Below are positions 1,324 through 43,498 of a stretch of DNA of 64,000 nt, piece after piece. The stretch is from NCBI RefSeq assembly GCF_000003815.2, contig NC_049986.1, positions 2,507,685-2,571,684 on the forward strand. The letters are read 5' to 3'. The notes below the pieces were generated by a model. The model made no database searches, was not told the DNA's origin, and saw nothing but the letters and a program-made list of their open reading frames with translations. A program made the translations under genes and the position numbers. Source of the DNA: Branchiostoma floridae (Eukaryota; Chordata; Leptocardii; Amphioxiformes; Branchiostomatidae). Numbering within the stretch: the stretch's first letter is position 1; each line of letters begins with the position of its first letter.

Positions 1324-1994
1324 GGCACTTCTGGAGAGCCGTCTAAAAAACGAGAGACTCTGACGACGTCTGTATCCCCGTCTCTAGTGAGCAAAACTTT
1401 CCCGAAGCTTCAGTCCAACCCGCCGGCTCCCCTCGTCTCTACCCTTCCGAGCGCTGTTCGTAACATCAGTCCTTCCCCGCCTCGCACCCTCGCTCACGGC
1501 TCACTGCCGGTGACTTCTCCTCGCCAAAACGCTATACCCATTTCACCTCCAATGACCACCCGTGCAACCTCCATCTCCACCCGCACTACCCTAATAACCA
1601 CCCGTACAACCTCCATATCCACCCGCACTACTCCAATAACCACCCGTACAACCTCCATAAACACCCATACTACTTCAATAACCACCCGTGCAACCTCCAT
1701 ATCCACCCTCACTAACCCAATAACCACCCGTGCAACCTCCATAACCACCCTCACTACCCCAATAACCACCCGTGCAACCTCCATAACCACCCTCACTACC
1801 CCAATAACCACCCGTACAGCCCCAATCATAACCTGCCCACCCCCAGTCATGACCGTTGAGTCCGCCACTCCTTGTCCTGGGAACGACACCACCAGGGTAT
1901 TTGTGGACAACGGGACGGTGTCGTCCCCAGGGTACCCAGAGGAGTACCCTCCATGCATGTGCCGCACGTGGATATTTTGGACCAGTCCTGGAAA
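1324..1994 (+). CDS. CUB gene exon A: Thr-rich linker plus first half of CUB
   Basis: The exon opens after a polypyrimidine/GTTT tract and TTGTAG, and closes at the strong donor GTAAGT (1995). The frame is open throughout and includes about 21 codons upstream of the GTG at 1387, which is not a start. Residues encoded by about 1552-1830 are almost purely Thr, Ser, Ile and Arg, as expected for an O-glycosylated mucin-like stalk. The CUB domain begins at CPGNDTTRVF near 1870 and is cut by the intron just after RTWIFWTSPGK. Confidence 0.75.
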
Positions 1995-4900
1995 GTAAGT
2001 TCAGATGAGTAATATCTTATCTGAAAGTTGCATTTCTTGTTGTTGTTACCTCCATGAAAAATGGAGGTATAGTTTTTGGTGTGTCTGTGTGTGTGTCTGT
2101 CTGTTTGTTTGTGTTTGCGGATATTTGTGGTAAGTATAACTTTAGAACCTCTTGATGGATTGTAATTACATTTAGTATGTGGGTAAGTGTTGGGAATACA
2201 AAGGTCAAGGTCAATTTTGGGCCCCCTAGATCTTGGTCTGCAGCAGAACTTCAATTTTATGTATCCTTTGACCTGGACATGCTATGGTCTTGATTTTCAG
2301 GTGGCTTATAGCTTGTGTTATAGGTTTGGGCCTCCGAGTTTTCATATTGTAGCCTGGTATCCAGTTATATAGCTCCCGAGTCTCTTCTGTCCTCTCTGAA
2401 AAGGAAAATACACACAGAAAGGACAACAGAGTCCAAAAGCTGTAATACGGCTGGATACCAGACTATTCATATTGTACTGTTAAGTTTTTCGTGATTATTC
2501 AGCCAAAAGCATTTTTTGTCAGACTGAAACCCAACAGTCATAAGTTCAATTTTTTACTCTGTGACACTGGAGGGTAACCTCCAGTAACAGAGTATTGTAA
2601 TCACTTTGTGCGTTGGCTGTTCGCACCCATATCTCTATGTTCCGTATGCCGCAATCGCATGTGGATTGGCATGTCGTCTGTACTCGGTTAGGAAATGATG
2701 CACGTTGGTGTTTTTTTCGCCGTAGCTGTTTTTATTACGGAAGTAATAATTTCAGTTTTCACCCCTACGCCGTCCGGTTTAGTGGTTCAGGTCTTCCTTA
2801 TGATTGTGCCTTAAGCGTTGTAGTTATTTGATAACGTCAAGCAGATGTTGGCCTCGTCGGAATATGCCATCTCGTTCGGGCTTTGCGTTTCCAATATTGA
2901 GGTTGGTTTGACATAGCATACTGTTAACATTTTGCGCGGTTGATAGTCATATGCATGTTATGGTTAAAATGTGTTTGATCTTTGGGAGCCTTTTTTTTCG
3001 CGGTAGCTATTTTCATTATCGATGTAATAATTTGAGATGTCACCCCTATTTCCCTGGTATTGTAGACCAGCTGGCTTATAGACGCTGGGGTCTGGCAATT
3101 ACTTATCTCGAAGCAGATATGGGGTTATTTCCACAGCTGTGGTTGACCTACTTTTTAACGTGGTGTACGTCTCAAGTATCCATTGTGAGGCGCTGTTGTT
3201 GTTACCTCCATGAAAAAATGGAGGTATAGTTTTGAGTGTGTCTGTGTGTGTGTCTGTGTGTGTGTGTGTCTGTCTGTGTGTCCGCATATTTGTGGTCATC
3301 ATAACTTGAGAACCTCTTGATGGACTACGATGATATTTGGTATGTGGGTAGGGGTTGGGAAGACGAAGGTCAAGGTCAATTTTGGGCCCCCTGGTGTGTG
3401 ACCTTGGTACTGCAGCGCAACTTCCGGTTTTGCTCTCTCGGTGTTCTGAACATGCTATGGACAAGATTTTTAAGTATTAGATAGCTCTTGCGCTCAGGAA
3501 AAAATTACGTAAGTTTGGGCCCCCTAGCGTCTAGTTTGGGGATAGCAGGGGCATTTTTGTCAAAAACTTCTGACGAGGATAACTCAAGAAGGGAACAACG
3601 GATTTTCATCATTTTTGGTATGTAGGTACCTTAGACAATGTTGTACAAGATTAAATACTAATTATGCAAAATAGGAGTACATTTGCATAATTAATGAGGA
3701 TATTATATCATGGCAGTTTTTTCAATGTATCTCTTGTTCTGGATGTGATATGGTCTTGACATTTGGCTGGTAGATAGCTTGCAGTGTCATGACAAAGTGG
3801 GGCAGGTTTCAGCCCCCTAACATGTAATTTCGGAACTGCAGGGGCGTTTTTGTCAAGACATTCTAAAGAGGATAACTGCAGAAAAGATTGATGGATTGGC
3901 ATCATTTTAGGCATGCGGGTACCTTAGGCAAAGATGTTCATAATGATATACATTTTATGCGAATTAGGACCTAATTTGCATAATTAATGAGGAAATTGTA
4001 TAATTCCATTGTTTTCAATAACTGGACTTCAATAAGTGTAACACATGTTAAGTATGATGGGTGGAATATAAGCAGATACCAAATATGGTAATGAGGAACT
4101 TATTTGCATAATTTATGTAAAAATTGCAAAAACGCTTTATGATTAATAATGGGAATTTTATAATTGTGACATGTGTATGTTAGTCAATGATGAACAATAC
4201 CATGCATAAATTATGTTAATGTGTTAGTCAATTGCATAAAATTTACAAAAGCTCTAAATTTTCATGGAGGTATGAGGTCGCCGAACTCTAGTTTCATTTG
4301 TGTCGTTCGATTGAGACGTTGACTTAAATTTGTTTTGTTTGTTTTGTGTTTTAAATTTGGCAGTGATAGGTATCGTAGCTTTTAAGTAAGTTTTTTGTAT
4401 TAGCTGATGTGATGTGTCTTGTATGCGAGTCACTACTATATAGGTGGGGTGGCCATGCTATTAATCTGTCGGGTAGGAACGTGTCTTTTGTGACCGGAAC
4501 ACCGAAAGTAGAGGGAATTAGAAGGGACAGAAGGGGTATGATCTTGGAGGGAAATTATATTTTACACCAGGGATTGAAGGGTAGTTTTCATGAATGGAAA
4601 CTATATATTTCGCATATACACAGAATTAAGCCATTGTCGGTGGGAACTCAAACTTTAGGAAATTATTTCTGTACCTTGTATTTGTAGGACTTGGAGGAGC
4701 GTGTGCGTTGTATACGACATAGGTTGAGTATGTTTCGTCCCGGCTCACCGAAAGAAAGGCGTTATGATCAGGAACAGAACGGGACTGTTATGAACGGTGA
4801 TTATATTTGAACCATACACACAGATTGTTATGTCTGTAAACCAACCGTACAAACAAATACAGAAGCATTTACCTGCTTATCCTCATCATTAACAAACCAT

Positions 4901-5209
4901 TGAGTTTGTTACCTACGGTCACTTGTTCAATTTTTTTATTTGTTTGTTTGCAGACGTGTCGTCCTAAAGTTTCTCCACCTTGTGGTTGAGGAACACTACA
5001 AATGCAAATTCGACAACGTGACGATTGTCATCGACGGCAAACGCCCCGGGCAGACGTTCTGCGGCGGCGGGAATAACCAGTACGTCCCCCGCCCGCCTCC
5101 ATCCTCCATCACCGGTAATACCACTGTAGAAGTCACGATGAAGACTGACGACAGCGAACAGAATACTGGCATACAGCTCCAGTACAGCAGTATGTCAGAT
5201 CGTGGGTAG
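1324..5209 (+). CDS. Mucin-like/CUB domain gene, partial (join 1324-1994, 4954-5209)
   Basis: Two exons encode a Thr/Ser/Pro-rich region followed by a CUB domain, an extracellular beta-sandwich module used in secreted and membrane proteins for protein or carbohydrate binding. Splicing after 1994 (GAAA|GTAAGT) to 4954 (TTTGCAG|ACGTG) keeps the frame (phase 2) and joins the two CUB halves. The first half has CPGND, VSSPGYPEEYPPC and RTWIF. The second has LHLVVEEHYKCKFDNVTI, TFCGGG and MKTDDSEQNTGIQLQY. The acidic residues in EEHYKC, KFDNV and TDDSEQNTG are where calcium-binding CUB domains carry ligands. No signal peptide or start codon is visible, so upstream exons must exist. The frame closes at TAG 5207-5209, but a weak donor at 5204 (GTAGTA) could continue into further exons. 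The specific protein is not identified. Confidence 0.8.
1552..1829 (+). repeat. Coding minisatellite, 42-bp unit (Thr-rich)
   Basis: About six and a half imperfect copies of a 42-bp unit encode the 14-residue pattern TTRATSITTLTTPI and variants (TTRTTSISTRTTPI). The unit is divisible by three, so gain or loss of copies keeps the CUB frame. The array is expected to vary in length between individuals. Confidence 0.85.
2038..2350 (+). repeat. Dispersed element, 5' part (CTCCATGAAAAATGGAGG start)
   Basis: This stretch starts with GTTACCTCCATGAAAAATGG, runs through a GTGTGTCTG tract, then AACCTCTTGATGGATT and AAGGTCAAGGTCAATTTTGG. The same order occurs at 3199, 63440 and, inverted, at 20455. It lies in the intron of the CUB gene and is interrupted by a small MITE at 2351. 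Confidence 0.8.
2351..2462. mobile_element. Small MITE with 11-bp target duplication
   Basis: Terminal inverted repeats (CCTGGTATCCAG and CTGGATACCAG) flank about 112 bp. TTCATATTGTA occurs on both sides, which looks like a target-site duplication made by insertion into the 2038 element. CTGGTATCCAGGCTAG-like sequence also occurs near 59708, 59852 and 62338. Confidence 0.7.
2603..3198. other. Intronic sequence with diverged duplicate blocks
   Basis: Two blocks share T-rich motifs (TTTTTTTCGCCGTAGCTG near 2710, TTTTTTTCGCGGTAGCTA near 2992, each followed by TAATAATTT and CACCCCTA). This suggests an old tandem duplication. No coding signal is seen. Confidence 0.45.
3199..4291 (+). mobile_element. 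Complete non-coding element, about 1.1 kb, in CUB intron
   Basis: The element begins TTACCTCCATGAAAAAATGG and ends TTTTCATGGAGGTATGAGGT then CGCCGAACTCTAG. The sequence TTTTCATGGAGGTA at the 3' end is the inverse of the start. It contains the GTGTGTCTG tract, CTTGATGGACTACGATGATA and AATTTGCATAATTAATGAGG motifs seen in the copies at 47755 and 63440. No ORF of note is present, so it is probably a non-autonomous DNA element. Its superfamily is not identified. Confidence 0.75.
4292..4953. other. 3' part of CUB intron
   Basis: No gene is seen. Short similar segments at about 4498 and 4748 (ACCGAAAG followed by GGGA and TATGATC) suggest an old internal duplication. It ends in (TTTG)n and the acceptor CAG at 4951-4953. 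Confidence 0.5.
4954..5209 (+). CDS. CUB gene exon B: second half of CUB domain
   Basis: The acceptor is TTGTTTGCAG at 4953. The frame continues from exon A with phase 2 and reads KRVVLKFLHLVVEEHYKCKF, then DNVTIVIDGKRPGQTFCGGG and ends QLQYSSMSDRG before TAG. Cys in YKCKF and TFCGG are the third and fourth canonical CUB cysteines. Either the gene ends here or a weak donor at 5204 leads to more domains. Confidence 0.75.
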
Positions 5210-6801: not shown

Positions 6802-7209
6802 CTTACGCTCGCATCAGTTTTTAAATTCCCAGTGGATGTCATCCATATAGTCAACTAAACATGGCCTTTAAACATGTACACCAGCTGTACATGCTTTTGT
6901 ACATAGTATAGCATATCACACACACAAAGGAAACCATACAACATGTTACGTTGTGTGGCTTTGGCACAGTTTCTGACACACACAAAAAAACATTGAGTAT
7001 TCAGTAATGCACAACTACTTGAACTAGAGACAACACATATTGTCTACTTATAACAGGAAGAGACTTATACTAGTTTGTTACTAGTACACATTTTTGTAGC
7101 ACCAATGGTATATAGCTATGTTTGACGTCTAACAGTCAGAGAACGGAACGGAATAAAACTATAGTGCAGCCTGTATTGTTTAACATTGAGTAAACAAAAA
7201 GGCACATCT

Positions 7210-7403
7210 TCATCTACAAAGAAGCGCGTCCAAGAAGAATGGTAGTCTGCCATCTTCTTCCTTGACGATTATGGCAGCAGTGGTAAGTTCAGGTAGACGG
7301 ACTAGCAGCGACCCCAAGCGACAAGGATCTGCACGGCAGTTTTCCGTAAGGCACAGCTCGTCCAGCAACTGGTACAACACAGGCGTCGTGTCGAAGGGGC
7401 CAT
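7210..7403 (-). CDS. NR6A-like: Nuclear receptor exon 8: LBD helices 10-12, stop
   Basis: The acceptor CTTCCTCAG precedes 7403. The frame runs [20 protein letters not shown] through [16 protein letters not shown] to [13 protein letters not shown] and TGA (7212-7210). SLLVRLPEL is the helix 10/11 region and LPFFLDALL sits where the AF-2 helix lies. The usual acidic Glu of a strong AF-2 is replaced by Asp within FFLDAL, and GCNF also lacks a classical AF-2. Joining to exon 7 makes LFNQD, the form seen in NR6A proteins. Confidence 0.88.
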
Positions 7404-10400
7404 CTGAGGAAGTACCGCGAAGTCGTTAAAATGACTGGATCTTTCCCACTACAACCTTCCAAATTAATTTTTCCTAAATTCTGTAACGTTTTGAAAAAGT
7501 CATTGCCTTGTCCTAACATCTAAGTTGCCCATCTAACCAATATATATAATATTTGCCTCATATCATATTCTATGGCTGTTGAAAGGGGTGGGTACCGGTA
7601 CAGAAAATTCAGGTACATGTACGGTCCAGGTCCAGAGGATCATGTCCAGGTCCGGACCTGAACCTGGACCTGATCATCTGTGAACATTTGTAAATGGTTG
7701 ATACTCAAAACAATGGTCCATTTCGCTACAAAGGAACCGGTTTGCTGGAATATCCGACGTCCATTTGCGTTTTAAAATCCTATCTTCATATGCACGTAAA
7801 CAACTCTAAATGCTTCTGTTTTATACCAAATTTGACAGTAGAAACTCGGTAAAAATAGCTATCATAACTTTCGAATCGGTCCAAAACCCGGTTCACTGAT
7901 TTTTTTTCAGGTGCGGTTTTTCGTGGACCGGTTTAACAAGAAATCGGTTTTGTACCGGTACACCGAACCGGTACTCACCCCCTATCAGCTACCATTCAGG
8001 TAGGAAAAGAGGAGTTGTTAATGACCTTGATTGAAAAGCACCATGGCCTTCAAAATGACGTATTCTTCCCTGCTCATGTGCAACTTCTGCAACGTCGTGG
8101 TCACGTGGTGCAGACGCTCCAATACGCCAGTAAGTTCGTCTGTCTGTCCTTTTCTCTCCCCGCTGTCCCGGATGCTGTTGTGAGGCGTAGATCCTGTGTG
8201 CAAGAGACATGAAATGAAATGCATATAAATTATAATAAGAACAATGTTCTTCATACCATCGACACAGTGGAGTTTGAAAGGAAATTTAGACAACACATGT
8301 GCCAGCACATGTTGTGCAATTATCCAGATGGTGCAATAAAGCGTAGCTATCAAGCTGGACCGCATCAATACGGGACTTTGGTATTCCGTGCAATTTACAG
8401 AAGTGTGCAGTTATCCGTTGTGCAATTAACTTCTACCGTATCTTCTACCGTACTAGTATGTCTATGTTTGGTTGTGTCGTTGCAGAATGTAGTACAGTAG
8501 AAGCCACAACGGATAACTGCACACTGCTGTTAATTGCACGGAATCCCAAAGTCCTGTAGTGATGCGGTCCAGCTTGATAAATTTGCTTTGTTGCACCACC
8601 CGAATAATTGCACAAAATGTGCTGGCAAATGGGAGTGCAATTAAACGACTTCTTCTGTAATATATATATTGGGTGCATTTGCAGCCACCAGGTACCCAAT
8701 GTGTTGAGTATTGAGGCTGATTAACGTGGTCGACGCACGTCCCTACCGGAAGACAATTTCGTGGAATTCTTCGTGAGGCTACAGCATAATAGTAGATTGG
8801 ACTCGTTCCTCAGCTAACCGACATAGTGCGATAGATGTCGGTTAGCTGAGGAATGCGTCCACTCTACTATATACTGTTTGTGTCGTTGTCTTTTGAGCAA
8901 GCTTGTTGGGTGTGTTGGTGTGTGGCAGTATGAGACAACGAGACAGAAAGAGAGAGAGGAAGAGACACTTGCAATTTACCTCGCAAAGTGGCGAGGTACT
9001 TCTGTAGTCTCAGCTCATTGTAGTAGATCCTCTGCATCAGCGTCATCCGGGGTATTTCTGTGACGTCATCCTGTTGCCTTGGATACAGCCTGGGCTGTAT
9101 GATGCTGTCCATCAGAGTCAGCTCCATCCACTTGTTGCTGAGAAGTCTGGACAGGTCCTGCTGTCCGAACTTCTCCTGGAAAGGGAACTTCTTCAGCCAC
9201 CTGAAAAGTGACACAGACGAGCATTTAGGGCTGAATTATAGATTTATGAATATATTAATTGATATATTACTATTTATATATTACTATTCTTGTGCATTTG
9301 TCTGTCTCTGCTTATAGACTACAATATCACCAAAGTTGCCAGAGAGTCTGTGTAATGTACTTGTGACATTTCCTAATAAATGAATAAAATAAATTATAGA
9401 TTTAAATGTAAACTTGGGTGCACCCCTCCCACGACCCTTACCCAATGCATGGAGAATGGATAAAATGATCTCAACGATGCTACGATATATAAGGCATTCA
9501 GGTTATTTGTGGTGCCTCTTCCATGAGTCAACAAAGATGATTAATTTTGTACCATTGGAAAAGAAATTACACACGCGTTTTATTGATGTAACGTTATAAT
9601 TCATTGAGATTAATGCAGAAACAATGCAAATATGATTTGCCAAAGTTGATACAAGTATTCCAAACTTTTTGTGCCGAGTTTAGTATAAATCACAGAATGG
9701 TTGTGAAAACAAGGCTGTGACTAACGAAACTAACCGTACAAGCCTCGCCACCAAATAGTTGCCCAGGTTCTGTATCGCATGCGCAGTATCGCACCGCGCA
9801 TCCTCCAGGTCGTACAGGATATGCGCATGCTCAGTTGCCTCTCCGTTAATCTTTCCGTTCGCCGCTGGTTCTTCGCACTTAATTTGAGGACAAAAAATGC
9901 CTTGATTAAAGTTCAATTTCTACACATTCTTCTTATATTCTTGCAAAATTAAGGACACTTGTGATCCTAAATCGTATCCACATTCTCAATCATTTTCAAT
10001 CTCCAAATGATAATAACCTTCTATTTGAAATGTCAAAGCTATTGGCTAATATGACAAGCAATAAAATAGCAATATTAGATCGTTGGAAAAAGGAAATAAT
10101 CTAAATAAGGCAATCTGTATAATAATGACATCTAGTGCATTTTTTAGCACAATATGTCTTATTTTGGGGATTTCAATAATAAGGAATATCCTAGTGCGCC
10201 TGGTCTCTGGGCCGTTAACCACTCGAATGATGAGATAATGATGGGAATACAGTGCAGTAGATGATAATATCATACAGATTGTCTCATCCAAAATATTTCC
10301 ATCTTTAACGCTGTAATATTGCTAAGGTTGTCTTTAATGAACACTAGAACTACTCAGACAATTGAAGCAACATCTTTTCTACCAACCGCGAGAAGTTCTT

Positions 10401-13400
10401 GCACAAGCCTGCTGTTGGTGACTACCGGATGTGACGTCAGACTTTCTCGGCTGTCCACGTCATATCCTGTCTCTGTGTCAGGAGAAACAGGTGGTTCTTT
10501 TGTGACGTCATGTTTCTTGTTGATCCACTCTCGTCTTTTCCGTTTGAGTCGTCCTCCGGGAACACGGTCCTCCCGAACAGCTGGGAAAATAAAACTTTCG
10601 TCAAGAAAATGCAGGGATCGTTTACATGTAACGCTAGTTCACCTAATTTTTCGGTGGGATAACCTATATCCGTTGTTGTATCAAACTGCAATATTTACAA
10701 ATATCGGGGTAACCTTTATCCGTTATTCGGTTGTTATATTAAACTGCAATATTGTCAAAATGCCACCGTCCGACGACTTGCTATCCCTGAATAGCCCGGT
10801 GTTTAAAAACGGATATAACGTTACGTTACCCTGTGGATAAAAGTGAACCAGCGTTAATTCGCTTTTGCAGCGTCGTTTGTTTTGTTGTTACCTTTCTTAA
10901 ACTTTGACTATACCTGTCCGTTATGTTTGTTTTTCTGTCAGTCTGTCTGTCTGCCTGTCTAACTGACTGACTGTCTGTCTGTCTGTCTGACTGTCTTACT
11001 GTCCGTCTGTCTGTCTGTCCGTCTGACTGACTGACTGTCATACTGTTTGTCTGTATGTCTGTCTGACTGACTGTCTTACTGTCTAACTGACTGTCTGTAT
11101 GTCTGTCTGACTGACTGTCTTACTGTCTGTCTGACTGACTGCCTGACTGACTGACTGACTGACTGTCTGTCTGTCTGTCTGTCTGACTGACTGACTGTCT
11201 GCCTGTCTGTCTGCCTGCCTGTCTGTCTGTATGTATGTATGTATGTCCGTGCGTTTATCTGTCTGTCTGCCATTGTGTCTGTCTGTCTGTCTGTCTGGAA
11301 GCACGAAATGACGATATGCAGCTACATTGTATGATACGTCAGGCGGAAGTACCTAACCCTAACCTCCAAGCAGATCCTACGGTAGCATAAGATAGTATAA
11401 AAAGCTGGCAGAAGAGTGAAGCCGGCCTAGGAGTGTGTGTGCGACCGGAGGTTTCACTCCTCTGTCAGCTTTTCTATCTTATGCTACCGTAGGATCTGCT
11501 TGGAGATTACATGACCCTTGTAGTGGGCCTTAGAAAAATAGATATCTAACAGTATGTTACGTCGTATCTAAAGCTCGACTCAATGATACACTGGCCCTCA
11601 CCTGCGATCATCATCCCTTTGCGCATGCACCGTCGCAGCCGGCAGCCCTGACAGAGGTTCCTCTTCTCCATCACCACCTCACACCTGTACTCTCCACGCA
11701 CGCATGCGTACAGACGCCTGTTCTGTACCTGTAGGAGAGATCACATGCATGCATGTCACAACGATATGTTCGTCCATAACTAGCCCCCCATAGCAGGCTC
11801 TCTGNNNNNNNNNNNNNNNNNNNNNNNNNNNNNNNNNNNNNNNNNNNNNNNNNNNNNNNNNNNNNNNNNNNNNNNNNNNNNNNNNNNNNNNNNNNNNNNN
11901 NNNNTCAGAGAGCCTGCTATGGAGGCTAGTCCATAACACGGCTAAGCTTGCAATGCAAACTCTAGTAGACTCTAGACTATGGCGTAGGTCCTATTTCCGG
12001 TCGGAATGTTTGCGGAAACGAAAAATAAAATCGGTTACAAAGGAATATACACAAACGATTCCCCTAGCTATTTTATTTCAAGTTCTGTGTCTTTCCTTGC
12101 CTTTCTCGCCACATTTTTCGTTTCCGAAAGCTACCCGGCCGGGTAATTGGAAATTGGGACCTAGGCCTCAGGCAACGTCACATTTTGAAACCGGGGCCCT
12201 GTCGGGCTGCTTGGGGAAACGCAAAATAGAAATGTATATGTAAATATTACACAAATAACGCCCACGACTATTCTCTTTACGTTTTGTGTAGTTTAGTGAA
12301 AAGTGTAGGGGTTCATCCCGGTGTAAGTTGATCAAATAAATCTGTCCGGATATGCAGTTTGTAAAAAAAAAAACCTGGTGTTATATATGACCTAAGGCGG
12401 TTTACCGGGTATGCAAAACAAAACAAACTAGCACTAACCGTCCGTTTGAAGAAGCCCTTGCAGCCTTCACACGCCATGGCTCCATAGTGTAGCCCGGACG
12501 CCTTGTCCCTACACACCACACACAACTTCTCAACTGGAACAGACGACAGAACAATGAAAATATGAGTGATTTGTGAACACGTAGGTTGCTCACAGTTTGT
12601 TTAAGTGACTGTAAATCTACAGAAGTCTTCGACAAGGGTGTAACGTATCGTTAGATCTGCCTTCGGAGTAAAACTTATAAGCAACACTATAGTCGCTAGT
12701 AGGGGTGGGTAACGGTACGGAAAATTTAGGTCCAGGTACGGTCCAGGTCCAGAAGATCAGGTCCAGGTCCGGACCTGAACCTGGACCTGATTTTCTATGA
12801 AAACTGTGAATGGACGATGCACAAAACAATGGTCCATTTCGCTTCAATTGATTCTCTTTAGTGACTTCCAGTGACGTTTTGAAAGCCTATCTTCATGTAA
12901 ACAAAACTAAATTTGAGCAAGTTTGACTGTAGAAACTTTTTAGAAATGACTATGAACGCTCCTTTAGATCTACTTCGCTTTTGTTATTTTCTTGGACCAG
13001 GAAGCCCCAAAACGCGTGAACGCCTGCCGATATAATCTGTTCCTTTTCTAAACGGTCCAAGATTTTTTTCAGGTCCATTTTTTCTGGACCGGTCCAACAA
13101 GAAAAAACTGGTTTTGTACCGGTACCGGTGCCCACCCCTAGTCGCTGGACCTTAGAATTCAGTCGCCCGTTTCACCCATTCAACATGTAGCACAGAAAAT
13201 ATCCTCATATCTAACGATTTGTTTAAAGAACAAACACAAACATAACGTCCGCATGGGTGTGACACCATAGCAACAGTGGAGACCGGCCATTTTAGTCTGT
13301 ATGTGTTTTTCCTGCACGTGCCCATCACGTGCACGTTCGGAGAGGGCATTCGCGAAGAATTCGCGTCCGACACTGTAAATATTTTCACCCTGTAAGTTTA

Positions 13401-16400
13401 TCCTTTTTACAAATTTACTAAACATATCCTTTCCAAATATCAACTTTTTTTCTAAAAGCTCTCAAACTTTTCTTTAATCGGAAGAAACGTTCTCAAATCT
13501 GTGGTGTAATATTTGATTTGGTCATTAGGCCATACGAATTGACTGCATAAGGCTTAGGTCACATTTCCAAACCGAGGCCCGACCGGGCAGCTTTCGGGAG
13601 CGAAAAGAATGATATAAAGACATGAAAATTCACAAAATGTCAAAATAAGATTCATGGGCATGGTTTCTGCATATTTCTAGGTATACATTTTAATTTTTCG
13701 TTTCTTAAAACATCCCGACCGGGCCCCGGTTTGGAAATGTGACCTAAGCCGAATAGATACAAGAGGACAGCTTTTCAAGTTTCTAAACATGTAAAATAAA
13801 ATGTTCCCTTACCTCGTACATGCTCCATTGGTCCCGTCCTAGGCAGGAGCAGCCTGTGTATTCCTCCATTGGCCTCTGCCTCCTGGAGACCGTACTGAAG
13901 TTCCGGGCTGGCCCGGGGGGTGGACTGGGGTGTCGCCGACAGACTACCCGTCCTTGGCGACGTGGAGCCTCGGAAAGGGTTTGGTGCCTGGTCATGTCTG
14001 GAGGCGTTTAGAATCTTGTATAAATCTGATGTACTGTTGTTTGTCGAAGGCTGGGTGCCATACGATGATTCTCTTGGAAGAGGGTTGGTTTGGATTAAAT
14101 GAGATGCATTTTGACCATGAATTTCCTGACGTCTTACTGGCCAATAGATATGGGGTGACTTTCGGGTAGCTTGACCAGGCTGGGAGTGACCAAAACCTTC
14201 GGTGGTCAGTTGCTCGACTGGACTCTGATTCGTAACATTTGTTTCCAACAACAGTTGTTGAACACTTCGGTTAACCATGGGCGAGGGTTCTCTTAGCCCA
14301 CTTTGTCCCGGAGAGTACTGTGGATTGTTCGGCACCATGACGGAATGTTGCTTGTTTGGGACAGGTTGTTGTTTAGTGACATGAGTTTCCAGCATTATGC
14401 TGTGAATATCAAAGTCAGGCGACTGAAACATCAGGTTTTCGTAGTTTGTTGTCATTGCGAATGGAGGCTGCCCTTGTAGTAAGGATTCTACGCTCTTGCG
14501 TCCTGCTGTAGCATCTGACCGCATGACAAGGTGGGACATGTCCTGACTACCGTTGGAGAACGTTCTCCCTTCACCAGAGGTGTAACATGGTGACATGTTA
14601 GCTGTTGGAGCAAAGCCTGTTGTAGTGAAAAGTAAGTTCGGAGCTGACGGATACTTGACGGGGCCTTCACTTCCACCATGAGGCCTCCCTTCCCCGCCAT
14701 CCTGCCCGGACAGTTTTCTAGCCGGCAGGTCAGAGTAGGTAGCGTCGAAATGCTTCCCGGTGTCCTGATTTCCTATACCTTGACAGACATTAGGTAAATG
14801 TCCCTGCAGTGTGATGTCTTTATGAGGAAAATAGTCATGATGTCGCTGTTGAAGTGGCACCGCTGGCTTCCCTTGTTTGTAACAGCTGTACGACACAGTG
14901 TACTGTCCTTCTCGGCTTATAGTGGTTCCGTTTAGCCTCAACTGTCCGACAGGAGACGTTTCGACATCAGTTGTTGCTGAAGATGTCAGACCAGGACGGT
15001 CCTGGCAGCTGGCAGATGTGTAGGCCTGTTTTACTTGATGTTGGTTTGTCTTAGTCATGATCTCGCGTTCTGAGACTGCAGTAGTGTTTTGTCCGATGAC
15101 AGTCGCCATTTGGTGCGACTGTGCAACGTCAGGATGGATAACATTGATACCATTGCCTTTCAAGAGCATTTCAAAAGACAAGATTTGAGGTTGGACGCTT
15201 TCTGCAGGAGGTGTGGATTGTTGGGCCAGCTTTGCTTCAACCGGCAGCTGATGCGATGATATGTTCTGCATCATCATCTGAGGAACGTCATTCGGAACGT
15301 CATTCGGAACGGGCCTACATTCGGAGTTTAACGTTATGACGGGTTGTTGAGACACCTGTTGCGAGCTGCACGGCAGGGACAGGGGGATCTGCTGTGGGTG
15401 GAACATCAGCACAGCCGGTACTTCGATCTGTATGGTCGGTTGGAATGGCGTAAAAACCAGTCCTCCGGGCTGCAGTTGCTCCATACCTTCAGTTTTCGTC
15501 TCTGGATACATGGGTTTATCTCCGGGTTGAGATGTTTGGGCTTTACGCACAGACGAATTCACCGTTTGTGTTCTGACTGTGCTTTTGTTCTCCTGACCGC
15601 TTGCAGGATGCAGCGCGTTCGTACAGACAGGGGGAACCGTATGTTGGCCTGAATGTGCGGCTTCTTGTGGCACAGCCGAAGCTACATGACCTCGAGCTAA
15701 GTATGAAGTGTACCGCTTCTTTGGGGGACTACAATAGTCGAAGTTTTCGTTCGCTGTGGGAACCGAAGATGTCGCCTTTCTTTTAGCTGAAAAGTCCTGC
15801 ACAGCAAACTTATCTACATGCAGATTTTCTGGCAATTGCTCTCCACCTTGGTATGGTCTGATTTTACCGTTTGGTATTGACTTTGAATCAGTGCGTGAAT
15901 GACCGTTTAAGACTCTGTCGACCGATTTTGTTCTCGACGCTTGAACTTCGCCATTTTCACACCGTTGCTCTCGTATTTTTGAAGTTATCACCTCTTTTGC
16001 GACGGACCCGCAAATCTGTACGTGTGTGTCGTTCGTTACGGACTGTGTCCGTGCGGTAGCAGGCTCTGTGACCCCCTTGGTACTGTTAGGAGGTTTACAA
16101 CAACCGTTCATACTAGCGACTGCGAGCCATTGTGTCCCAGCTGTCCTGTACTCTTCTGTACCCGCTCGTCGCAGTCGACTAGTCGCTAAATAAGCGCGAT
16201 GTTCGGTACAGCTTTCCTCCTGTGATTTTTCGGGGTAAATGTTCTCTGTGCTGTGGTCAGTGTGGTTCCAAACGTTCTCCTGTGCCCCGGTGACGGCCAG
16301 TGTTTCGTCATTCATGCCGCACCCGGTGACCCCGTCTTGCCCATGATTTGCGCAAGGCGCCACCTCTTCAACCCCCAGCATGGTTCTGTCTCTGTATGAT

Positions 16401-16417
16401 GCAATCAAAGTGGCCAT
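7210..16417 (-). CDS. NR6A-like: NR6A (GCNF/HR4)-like nuclear receptor with giant N-terminus, 8 coding exons
   Basis: The gene encodes a zinc-finger ligand-type nuclear receptor, a DNA-binding transcription factor. Coding exons are 16417-13813, 12533-12439, 11728-11602, 10580-10387, 9877-9735, 9200-8980, 8193-8026 and 7403-7210; phases agree at all seven junctions, giving about 1248 residues. Order: residues 1-868 low-complexity N-terminus; DNA-binding domain about 873-942 with all eight zinc cysteines and P-box CEGCKG; extension [11 protein letters not shown] (943-953); LBD about 1005-1248 with helix 3-5 signature WLKKFPF...LLSNKWMEL, then [16 protein letters not shown] and AF-2-like [24 protein letters not shown] and REDRVPGGR point to the NR5/NR6 branch. 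The LBD fits vertebrate NR6A1 best, a family that binds extended AGGTCA-type sites, mostly as a repressor. Vertebrate NR6A1 is only about 480 residues; arthropod HR4 has a long N-terminus. A lineage-specific NR5/6 relative is the main alternative. Confidence 0.92.
7583..7984. mobile_element. hAT-like MITE (GGGGTGGGTACC family), intron 7
   Basis: Ends are AAGGGGTGGGTACCGGTACA and GAACCGGTACTCACCCCCTA, with the stepped GGTCCAGGTCC / GGACCTGAACCTGGACCTGA palindrome near the left. Copies lie at 12700, 18443, 39166 and 58346. No clear 8-bp target duplication is seen at this copy. It sits between exons 7 and 8 of the nuclear receptor. Confidence 0.8.
8026..8193 (-). CDS. NR6A-like: Nuclear receptor exon 7: LBD helices 7-9
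   Basis: The exon encodes [15 protein letters not shown], a linker, then [20 protein letters not shown] and [12 protein letters not shown]. The segment Leu-x-x-(S/N)-x-EEY-x-x-(M/L)KA-x-x-(F/L)-(L/F)NQ is a strong NR6-type LBD signature. The acceptor is TTGCACACAG. The donor is GTCATT, a weak site, but the frame stops two codons later and both phases (1/1) fit the neighbours. Confidence 0.88.
8301..8626. mobile_element. Long palindromic MITE, intron 6
   Basis: Two arms of about 150 bp are inverted copies. GCCAGCACATGTTGTGCAAT (8301) mirrors ATTGCACAAAATGTGCTGGC (about 8607-8626). CAAGCTGGACCGCATCAATA and CAGTTATCCGTTGTG have inverted mates at about 8560 and 8500. The loop is about 30 bp. ORF calls here on both strands are by-products of the palindrome. 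Confidence 0.85.
8789..8870. repeat. Hairpin, about 36-bp arms, intron 6
   Basis: ATAGTAGATTGGACTCGTTC then CTCAGCTAACCGACAT is mirrored after a short loop by ATGTCGGTTAGCTGAGGAAT then GCGTCCACTCTACTAT. A few mismatches show it is aged. It lies about 110 bp from the donor of exon 6. Confidence 0.8.
8980..9200 (-). CDS. NR6A-like: Nuclear receptor exon 6: LBD helices 3-6
   Basis: The exon encodes [20 protein letters not shown] and [15 protein letters not shown], then [20 protein letters not shown] and [18 protein letters not shown]-(L/I)-KK-(L/F)-PF...LL-S-x-x-W-x-EL is the nuclear receptor LBD signature, in the form typical of NR6A. The acceptor is CACTTTTCAG and the donor is CGAG|GTAAAT. 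Phases are 2 in and 1 out. Confidence 0.9.
9735..9877 (-). CDS. NR6A-like: Nuclear receptor exon 5: start of LBD
   Basis: The exon encodes [20 protein letters not shown] then [20 protein letters not shown] and YLVARLV. It aligns with the LBD helix 1-3 region leading into WLKKFPF. The acceptor reads TCCTCAAATTAAG, not a strong polypyrimidine tract. The donor is GTTAGT. In phase 0, out phase 2. Codon phase with both neighbours supports the model, though the acceptor could be off by a few bases. Confidence 0.78.
9901..10386. other. Intron 4 of the nuclear receptor
   Basis: AT-rich sequence with no repeat family recognised and no extra exon seen. Confidence 0.5.
10387..10580 (-). CDS. NR6A-like: Nuclear receptor exon 4: C-terminal extension and hinge
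   Basis: The exon starts with [19 protein letters not shown], the C-terminal extension of the DNA-binding domain, with a basic cluster KRKRR that can act as nuclear localisation signal and DNA contact. The hinge follows: [20 protein letters not shown] and [16 protein letters not shown]. The last part matches the NR6A position before helix 1 (Leu-x-x-x-LL). The acceptor is TTTATTTTCCCAG and the donor GTTGGT is moderate. An alternative donor GTAGAA lies 4 nt further. Confidence 0.88.
10629..10857. mobile_element. MITE in intron 3, about 50 bp from the exon 4 acceptor
   Basis: Terminal inverted repeats are AACGCTAGTTCACC and GGTTCACTTTTATCC-type (GTGAACCAGCGTT at the right). Sub-terminal CCTATATCCG and CGGATATAACG mirror each other, and CAAACTGCAATATT occurs twice inside. 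It belongs to the same family as 5970-6190. Confidence 0.75.
10920..11299. repeat. (TCTG/ACTG)n simple repeat, intron 3
   Basis: About 380 bp of imperfect TCTG, ACTG and TATG units. Apparent ORFs rich in RQTDRQ on the minus strand are translation of this tract, not genes. Confidence 0.95.
11364..11506. mobile_element. Palindromic MITE (CTCCAAGCAGATC family), intron 3
   Basis: CTCCAAGCAGATCCTACGGT then AGCATAAGATAG is mirrored by CTATCTTATGCT then ACCGTAGGATCTGCTTGGAG. The centre GCCGGCCTAGGAG also folds. Relatives occur at 27925, 29504 and 34326, and its outer end ATCTGCTTGGAGA opens each unit of the 84-bp array at 29714. Confidence 0.9.
11602..11728 (-). CDS. NR6A-like: Nuclear receptor exon 3: second zinc finger
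   Basis: The exon encodes [20 protein letters not shown] then [20 protein letters not shown] and IA. The four second-finger cysteines are present. There are six residues between the first two (CVRGEYRC) where most nuclear receptors have five. The acceptor is CTCTCCTACAG and the donor GCAG|GTGAGG; both are strong. RTVQNRR agrees with the NR5/NR6 branch. Confidence 0.93.
11805..11904. other. Assembly gap (100 N) inside an inverted repeat
   Basis: Exactly 100 N mark a gap of unknown true size. Left flank CATAGCAGGCTCTCTG and right flank CAGAGAGCCTGCTATGG are inverted copies, with CTAGCCCC / GGAGGCTAGT beyond. The missing sequence is therefore probably the inside of a palindromic element in intron 2. 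Confidence 0.95.
11980..12300. mobile_element. Two adjoining degenerate copies of the GGCCCGGCCGGG MITE
   Basis: The first copy (about 11980-12170) runs from GGCGTAGGTCCTATTTCC to GGAAATTGGGACCTAGGCC with CCCGGCCGGGTA inside. A second, half copy follows (GTCACATTTTGAAACCGGGG at 12177 onwards). The family also occurs at 13551, 21061, 25712 and 31375-31745. Confidence 0.7.
12439..12533 (-). CDS. NR6A-like: Nuclear receptor exon 2: first zinc finger and P-box
   Basis: The exon encodes [20 protein letters not shown] then [12 protein letters not shown]. The four first-finger cysteines and the P-box CEGCKG are intact, predicting AGGTCA-type half-site recognition. The residue after the second Cys is Arg (CRDKASG) where Gly is usual. 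The acceptor is GTCTGTTCCAG and the donor is GTTAGT. Phase 1 in, 0 out. Confidence 0.95.
12700..13140. mobile_element. hAT-like MITE with 8-bp target duplication, intron 1
   Basis: The 441-bp element starts TAGGGGTGGGTAACGG and ends ACCGGTGCCCACCCCTA. It is flanked by GTCGCTAG and GTCGCTGG. An 8-bp duplication with T at position 2 and A/G at 7, plus AGGGGTGGG termini, is typical of hAT transposons. No transposase is encoded. Confidence 0.85.
13141..13550. other. Intron 1 of the nuclear receptor, middle part
   Basis: Unique-looking sequence with a palindromic GCACGTGCCCATCACGTGCA at about 13314 (two CACGTG E-boxes). No exon seen. Confidence 0.45.
13551..13750. mobile_element. Palindromic MITE, 200 bp, near-perfect ends, intron 1
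   Basis: GGCTTAGGTCACATTTCCAA at the left is mirrored by TTGGAAATGTGACCTAAGCC at the right, with CGACCGGGCAGCTTTC / CATCCCGACCGGG inside. It ends 63 bp from the donor of exon 1. Confidence 0.9.
13813..16417 (-). CDS. NR6A-like: Nuclear receptor exon 1: 868-residue N-terminal domain
   Basis: A single 2605-nt coding exon begins [18 protein letters not shown] and ends GPMEHVR before the strong donor GTAAGG (13812); past the donor the frame reads only 12 more codons. Met at 16417 is the first in frame, just after an in-frame TGA region. The sequence is rich in Ser, Gln, Thr and Pro and is predicted disordered. A likely bipartite nuclear localisation signal is KRKATSS...PPKKRY (residues about 212-236). 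Six short hydrophobic motifs resemble NR boxes: FEMLL (415), VESLL (643), IHSIM (671), VQQLL (719), LYKIL (799) and IHRLL (853). Two of them lie in a duplicated motif, [11 protein letters not shown] and [13 protein letters not shown]6A of vertebrates lacks such a region, while arthropod HR4 has a long one. Confidence 0.9.
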
Positions 16418-42920: not shown

Positions 42921-43498
42921 CGAGGGGCGTGCAATTAGTAATGGTCCTGACCCATTTCCCATAGCAGGAGATTAATGAAACTTGGCACAGTTATTAATCT
43001 TTCTCTTCATAGGAATCACACAGAGTTATGCATTTCTCCCATCGTTTGATGCAGCTCTGGACACCGATTTTGTAGGACACCCCAGGTTGGTCCTCCAACT
43101 GATGCCTCATCAATGGCACAAGAGGGACGACCAGGTCTGGGAGCTGTTTCCACAGACTTCCAGCCACGTTTGAATTCAGGATGCCAGCGTTTTACAAGGT
43201 CATATGATGGGGCATCATCACCATAAGTTTCATTTATTTCATCAAAAGTCTTCTTTGGTGTGCGTCCTTTCAAATACAAAAACCGGATCACTGCGCGACA
43301 CTCAACTGGTTCCATTTCACACCTGGTCCATTTCGCACCTGACTAAGTTCAAACACCAGGAAATCAGAAACCACAATTAGTTCAGAGCTGTCTTTTGCAA
43401 CATAACCCATAGAGATATGAATTATTACACATACAAAATTTCATTTAGATCAGACAACTGGAAGTGGGTCAGGACCATTACTTATTGCACGCCCCTCG
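42921..43498 (-). mobile_element. Mariner-like element, 578 bp, internally deleted
   Basis: Terminal inverted repeats CGAGGGGCGTGCAATTAGTA then ATGGTCCTGACCCA and TGGGTCAGGACCATTACTTA then TTGCACGCCCCTCG are flanked by TA on both sides (42919-42920, 43499-43500), the mariner target duplication. It contains a remnant of transposase on the minus strand. Non-autonomous. Confidence 0.93.
43016..43315 (-). pseudogene. Mariner transposase remnant (N-terminal HTH)
   Basis: The frame MEPVECRAVIRFLYLKGRTP, KKTFDEINETYGDDAPSYDL and VKRWHPEFKRGWKSVE then PRPGRPS is the paired-like helix-turn-helix of mariner transposases (Mos1/SETMAR type). After about residue 70 the frame jumps to NRCPELHQTMGEMHNSV, similar to the family's extreme C-terminus. 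The DDD catalytic core has therefore been deleted. Not an active enzyme. Confidence 0.88.

What the first reader, a model, noticed from the sequence alone, without database searches (positions are those of the whole stretch)
7210..16417. NR6A/HR4-type nuclear receptor with an 868-residue N-terminal exon
Eight exons with matching phases give about 1248 residues, of which two thirds precede the DNA-binding domain. Vertebrate NR6A1 (about 480 residues) has almost no such region, while arthropod HR4 does. If this is the amphioxus NR6A, a giant N-terminus may be ancestral to bilaterians and lost in vertebrates. It would be missed by gene models starting at the DNA-binding domain.
Basis: partly seen in the sequence, partly recalled or inferred. 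Interest (0 to 1): 0.8.

Follow-up and report, generated by a model that had tools for sequence, protein, structure and literature searches.

The report
Second, divergent NR6-like amphioxus nuclear receptor
The window holds an intact, fast-evolving nuclear-receptor gene with an 868-residue disordered front end, but the animal's true NR6A/GCNF gene lies 129,000 bases away, so this is a second NR6-like gene and its long front end does not show what vertebrates lost.

Summary
On the minus strand, eight exons (16417-7210) with GT-AG introns and matching phases encode 1248 residues: 868 in one exon, then a C4 zinc-finger DBD and a weak LBD (Pfam 2e-24 and 1.1e-8). The 883-codon open frame far exceeds chance (longest 254 in 60 simulated windows) and shows period-3 signal. 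No transcript was available. The host genome (513 Mb, amphioxus-like) has a clear GCNF/NR6A orthologue at C8:2653436-2663291, head-to-head with this gene and 129 kb away. So this is not 'the amphioxus NR6A', and 'giant N-terminus ancestral, lost in vertebrates' does not follow. Combined DBD+LBD does not resolve it, and its branch is very long. It has a 6-residue D-box and an AF-2-like end that GCNF lacks. Best reading: a second, divergent, probably HR4-like NR6-class receptor. The bold reading, that GCNF and HR4 are ancient paralogues both kept in amphioxus, is open.

The parts
13813..16417 (-). Exon 1: start codon and 868-residue N-terminal region (S/T/P/Q/G-rich, predicted disordered), ends in phase 1
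   Evidence: exon, donor CGAG|GTAAGG; open frame far beyond chance; TOP-IDP mean 0.170 against 0.073 for the LBD; only itself found in the genome
12439..12533 (-). Exon 2: first zinc finger of the DBD, P-box CEGCKG
11602..11728 (-). Exon 3: second zinc finger of the DBD
11684..11701 (-). D-box of six residues (VRGEYR) between the 5th and 6th zinc-binding Cys; five in GCNF
   Evidence: alignment; Cys positions
10387..10580 (-). Exon 4: C-terminal extension of the DBD, hinge, start of LBD helix 1 (helix by alignment)
10549..10575 (-). REDRVPGGR, the RED..PGGR signature shared with GCNF (NR5 has RADRMRGGR)
9735..9877 (-). Exon 5: LBD, after helix 1
8980..9200 (-). Exon 6: LBD helices 3-5 signature (RWLKKFPF...LLSNKWMEL)
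8026..8193 (-). Exon 7: LBD, ends NQ|D in phase 1 as in the GCNF orthologue
7210..7403 (-). Exon 8: end of LBD and stop codon
7219..7239 (-). AF-2-like end FFLDALL, with an acidic residue where GCNF has Lys
   Evidence: alignment

Best explanation
The gene is an intact second NR6-class nuclear receptor of amphioxus, HR4-like and fast-evolving, separate from the GCNF/NR6A orthologue 129 kb away. Shown: the exon structure, the two domains, the separate GCNF gene, and two intron positions shared with that gene. Inferred: it works as a DNA-binding transcription factor. Two intact zinc fingers with the GCNF-type P-box and an NR6-type C-terminal extension would read an AGGTCA-like site with a 5' extension, probably as a homodimer. 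The six-residue D-box would change dimer geometry relative to GCNF. The 868-residue disordered N-terminus, with repeated short hydrophobic motifs (PhixxPhi[LM]), would recruit cofactors as the main activation or repression surface. The LBD keeps a lysine in helix 3 and an acidic AF-2-like end, so unlike GCNF it could in principle dock LxxLL coactivators. The giant N-terminus belongs to this gene, not to NR6A.
For: Gene model. Domains. NR6A1 is the best PDB match for the DBD. RED..PGGR and GLHYG shared with GCNF. Window+GCNF in DBD trees 84/79 (36), 85/80 (66), 90/78 (82); with the recalled HR4, NR6 clade 96/92 (40), 95/92 (66), 95/91 (82), and window+HR4 95/80, 92/80, 96/86. In the tree with recalled HR4, holding the window with the human NR5 pair is rejected at p 0.032, with ERRA 0.029, with TLX/PNR 0.003. 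GCNF orthologue on the same contig. Introns K|A[IV]RED and NQ|D shared in place and phase. N-terminus finds only itself in the genome. Motif 10 against a mean of 2.97 in 1000 shuffles, pattern chosen after looking. NR5-like L001 and L007 also lie on C8.
Against: The branch is long (about 1.0 on the DBD, 2.17 on DBD+LBD), and the combined tree does not recover NR6. By pairwise BLAST the nearest DBD in the genome is an unclassified receptor at C1:9160841 (54%, 70.4 bits), just ahead of GCNF (52%, 68.0); pairing with it is not rejected (p 0.11 and 0.15), nor is pairing with the NR5-like L007 (p 0.08 and 0.11). In plain identity ERRA ties with GCNF. LBD PDB hits are led by USP; no NR6 chain is among the 60 of 109 hits shown. 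No RNA. Codon-usage test uninformative.
Confidence: 0.7

Rival explanations
1. It arose as a cephalochordate-specific duplicate of GCNF that then evolved very fast; the HR4-like look is convergence or kept ancestral residues.
For: Same contig, 129 kb apart, two shared introns. Without the recalled HR4, sisterhood to amphioxus GCNF on the DBD is not rejected: p 0.33, p 0.056.
Against: Rejected with the recalled HR4 DBD (p 0.0015, 0.0005) and on DBD+LBD without HR4 (p 0.0019). The human and amphioxus GCNF DBDs pair at 97/94 and 99/98 and exclude it.
Confidence: 0.3
2. It is a divergent receptor of another class (NR5-like, or kin of the unclassified receptor at C1:9160841), and its NR6 look is weak.
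For: Near ties in identity, slightly better BLAST score to C1:9160841, pairings with L003 and L007 not rejected, unresolved combined tree in which pairing with NR5A2 (p 0.14) or ERR (p 0.43) is not rejected.
Against: RED..PGGR signature, best PDB match NR6A1, grouping with the human NR5 pair rejected on the DBD at p 0.032.
Confidence: 0.2
3. Exon 1 is a separate gene or exon, and the receptor starts elsewhere with a short N-terminus.
For: No transcript; the frame runs 12 codons past the last exon-1 residue before a stop; codon test uninformative.
Against: Same strand, 1.28 kb upstream, good donor in the right phase, exon 2 needs a phase-1 partner, composition typical of a receptor A/B region.
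Confidence: 0.12

Closest known systems
NR6A1 / GCNF (vertebrates) and its amphioxus orthologue at C8:2653436-2663291
   Same: P-box, RED..PGGR extension, GLHYG, short helix-11 region, two intron positions with the same phase
   Different: DBD about 51% identical; six-residue D-box; acidic AF-2-like end instead of Lys; four further introns after the DBD start; 868-residue N-terminus, against about 60 in human (recalled)
HR4 / NR6A2 (arthropods, molluscs)
   Different: No verified HR4 sequence was available, so N-terminus and LBD were not compared
NR5A / NR5B (FTZ-F1, HR39)
   Same: KRTVQN, AVR.DR..GGR; two NR5-like genes on the same contig; the NR5-like L007 also has a long single-exon N-terminus (466 open codons before the DBD)
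   Different: P-box CESCKG and RADRMRGGR; grouping with the human NR5 pair rejected on the DBD at p 0.032, not rejected with NR5A2 on DBD+LBD (p 0.14)
NR7 of amphioxus (PMC9535869)
   Same: An amphioxus receptor lost in vertebrates (passages seen, two from the abstract)
   Different: Described there as dimerizing with RXR on DNA; no chain named NR7 among the 60 of 109 LBD hits shown

Membership tests
Nuclear receptor superfamily | C4 double zinc-finger DBD with eight zinc-binding Cys | tested here: met
   Pfam PF00105, 2e-24, 86.3 bits; Cys in register
Nuclear receptor superfamily | Ligand-binding domain | tested here: met
   Pfam PF00104, 1.1e-8, 35.2 bits, cut-off 23.5
NR6 (GCNF/HR4) | DBD phylogeny within NR6 | tested here: met
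   84/79, 85/80, 90/78 without HR4; 96/92, 95/92, 95/91 with recalled HR4; moderate, long branch, pairings with L003 or L007 not rejected
NR6 (GCNF/HR4) | DBD+LBD phylogeny within NR6 | tested here: inconclusive
   7 rows, unresolved, end branch 2.17
NR6 (GCNF/HR4) | RED..PGGR C-terminal extension | tested here: met
   Aligned to 5krb
   That gene is at C8:2653436-2663291
HR4 (NR6A2) | N-terminal similarity to HR4 proteins | not testable with these tools
   No animal protein collection held; scans of viral contigs and genome contigs with the recalled HR4 DBD found no relative

The most novel reading that the evidence does not exclude
GCNF and HR4 are ancient paralogues from a tandem duplication before the bilaterian radiation. 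Amphioxus still keeps both within 130 kb on one chromosome, vertebrates kept only GCNF, arthropods only HR4, and the giant N-terminus is an HR4-side trait.
Probability: 0.25. Interest if true: 0.7.

Novelty: new member of a known kind. Interest (0 to 1): 0.42.

Why it matters
If the bold reading holds, HR4 and GCNF are not simple orthologues, and functional comparisons between insect HR4 (ecdysone timing) and vertebrate NR6A1 (trunk, germ line) compare paralogues. Even if not, amphioxus has a second NR6-like receptor that should be separated from NR6A in receptor counts, and the window cannot be used to infer that vertebrate NR6A1 lost a large N-terminus.

Tried and rejected
Rejected: that this is the amphioxus NR6A orthologue. 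Rejected: exon 1 as a repeat or mobile element, since its protein finds only itself in the 513-Mb genome and has no Pfam or PDB match. Not supported: membership in TLX/PNR despite their six- and seven-residue D-boxes (p 0.003). Considered: Groucho-type eh1 motifs in the N-terminus (recalled motif; one paper search, listing only); by eye one stretch (FDIHSIM) looks like it, and no test of binding is possible, so not claimed. The patterns tried for LxxLL, PxDLS, a SUMO site and a four-basic-residue stretch found nothing in the N-terminus.

Led nowhere: scans for relatives in viral contigs and genome contigs; codon-usage test; combined DBD+LBD tree. 'NR6B' with 'nuclear receptor' and 'NR6A' finds no paper in the held library. 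'amphioxus' with 'GCNF' finds 10 papers; in the five of these in which I searched passages (PMC2749838, PMC7827873, PMC4388693, PMC8222990, PMC8363021) the passages shown did not describe this gene; the other five I saw as a listing only. Of the nine papers opened I saw passages alone. Two amphioxus receptor surveys cited there (Schubert 2008, Lecroisey 2012) were not read. I did not look for existing gene annotation of this locus.

Full report
What is there. The gene reads on the minus strand. Eight exons with GT-AG introns and consistent phases give a CDS of 3747 nt and 1248 residues. Exon 1 (16417-13813) carries the start codon, with an in-frame TAA starting 12 nt upstream, and 868 residues. 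Its 883-codon open frame compares with a longest frame of 254 codons in 60 order-2 Markov versions of the window and 344 in 300 Markov versions of the exon itself. Its period-3 signal is 8.3, against a median of 0.86 and a maximum of 6.3 among 240 stretches of the window and the neighbouring 81 kb. A codon-usage score trained only on exons 2-8 did not separate the sense frame from the others, so the coding case rests on the open frame, periodicity and splice context. No RNA was available.

Domains. Pfam finds the DBD (2e-24) and a weak LBD (1.1e-8). The N-terminus has no Pfam or PDB match, is rich in S, T, P, Q and G, scores as disordered on the TOP-IDP scale (0.170 against 0.073 for the LBD; scale recalled), and finds only itself in the genome. 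Short hydrophobic motifs of the form PhixxPhi[LM] occur 10 times, against a mean of 2.97 in 1000 shuffles (one shuffle reached 10). The pattern was chosen after looking, and the classical LxxLL box is absent.

The genome. The window lies at C8:2507685-2571684 of a 513,431,437-base, 431-contig assembly. Size (recalled) and receptor set fit Branchiostoma floridae, but no call names the species. A zf-C4 search gave 55 exon matches. I fetched 27 receptor loci and compared them with 24 DBDs; the ten matches of one cluster at C4:21.59-21.64 Mb were left out. Best matches among the 27 cover RAR, ROR, THR, RXR, HNF4, PPAR, REV-ERB, ERR, ER, PNR, TLX, COUP-TF, NR4A, NR5 and LXR/FXR types, some of them weakly or in near ties (L003, L039, L040, L042, L043). 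Only L004 matched GCNF best, and none matched the window gene or the recalled HR4 best.

The decisive finding. L004 is the GCNF orthologue: its DBD block aligns to human GCNF at 79% over 91 residues including divergent flank, and from CLICGD to GMNRK it differs at two positions. The LBD-side exons follow at 43-55% identity and the REDGMPGGR piece at 90%, giving the five-exon model C8:2653436-2663291 on the plus strand. The window gene is C8:2514894-2524101 on the minus strand, so the two lie head to head with 129 kb between the window start codon and the GCNF DBD exon. The window gene is therefore not the amphioxus NR6A. No open frame above 127 codons lies on the GCNF strand in the 82 kb upstream of its DBD exon, so nothing there suggests a giant single-exon N-terminus for the true NR6A. 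A multi-exon one is not excluded.

Where the window gene belongs. PDB ranks NR6A1 first for the DBD by a small margin: 95.3 bits, NR5A2 93.5, ERRA 92.7. DBD trees group it with GCNF at 84/79, 85/80 and 90/78. In the tree, forcing the window with the human NR5 pair, with ERRA or with TLX/PNR is rejected at p 0.032, 0.029 and 0.003. Results against: the combined DBD+LBD tree of seven rows is unresolved with a window branch of 2.17, and there neither NR5A2 (p 0.14) nor ERR (p 0.43) as partner is rejected; on the DBD, pairing with an unclassified receptor at C1:9160841 is not rejected (p 0.11, 0.15), nor with the NR5-like L007 (p 0.08, 0.11); and BLAST puts C1:9160841 marginally ahead of GCNF. Sisterhood to amphioxus GCNF is rejected when HR4 is present (p 0.0015, 0.0005) and on DBD+LBD (p 0.0019), but not on the DBD without HR4 (p 0.33, 0.056). 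The grouping of the window with both GCNFs against HR4 was not rejected (p 0.20), nor that of HR4 with both GCNFs against the window (p 0.22) (p 0.21 for HR4 with human GCNF). So the order within NR6 is open.

Structure of the gene. Two introns match the amphioxus GCNF gene in place and phase: K|A[IV]RED and NQ|D, both phase 1. The window gene has four further introns after the DBD start that GCNF lacks, and GCNF has two that the window gene lacks. These shared introns may be older than NR6. In the LBD the window protein and GCNF both lack part of the helix-11 region; the window protein has about 25 extra residues after helix 5 and ends in FFLDALL, where GCNF has LLFKVVL. The D-box has six residues, not five.

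How it most likely works. A transcription factor reading a GCNF/NR5-like element through zinc fingers and the RED..PGGR extension, with its regulatory surface mainly in the long disordered N-terminus. The acidic AF-2-like end leaves room for coactivator docking. All of this paragraph is inference from sequence.

Context. A long single-exon N-terminus is not unique in this genome: the NR5-like gene at C8:15.87 Mb has 466 open codons before its DBD. Lottia gigantea is reported with two HR4 genes that cluster with Drosophila HR4 (PMC4388693, passages). NR6 genes are reported as absent in the Pacific oyster (PMC4070562, passages).

Noticed in passing
C8:2653436-2663291 (L004, L017, L018): Amphioxus GCNF/NR6A orthologue on the plus strand, five exons from the DBD on; its N-terminal exon(s) were not found.
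   Followed up: partly
C8:2504800-2505319 (L022), copy of window 6850-7369: A 520-bp inverted copy (97.3%) of most of exon 8 and the sequence beyond it lies about 2.4 kb outside the window; the copied exon is cut at its 5' side and preceded by a stop, so it looks like a recent dead duplicate.
   Followed up: yes
C8:15831544-15834747 and C8:15874191-15877358 (L001, L007): Two NR5-like genes with DBDs about 43 kb apart on the same contig as both NR6-type genes.
   Followed up: partly
window 11805-11904: A 100-N assembly gap in intron 2 flanked by near-perfect inverted sequence.
   Followed up: no
window 1324-1995 and 4904-5206: Thr/Ser-rich frame with a 42/84-bp tandem repeat and, further on, a CUB domain (6.2e-5) on the plus strand; the repeat-rich part has a similar stretch in L022.
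   Followed up: partly
window 43019-43342 (-): Mos1-type transposase helix-turn-helix (HTH_48, 1.3e-10).
   Followed up: no
C8 about 2678595-2683142 (minus strand, L019-L020): A 1516-codon open frame downstream of GCNF, with a second copy of its first part next to it; looks like a mobile element, not identified.
   Followed up: no
C1:9160841-9161047 (L003): Receptor DBD of unclear class, the window DBD's nearest pairwise match elsewhere in the genome.
   Followed up: partly
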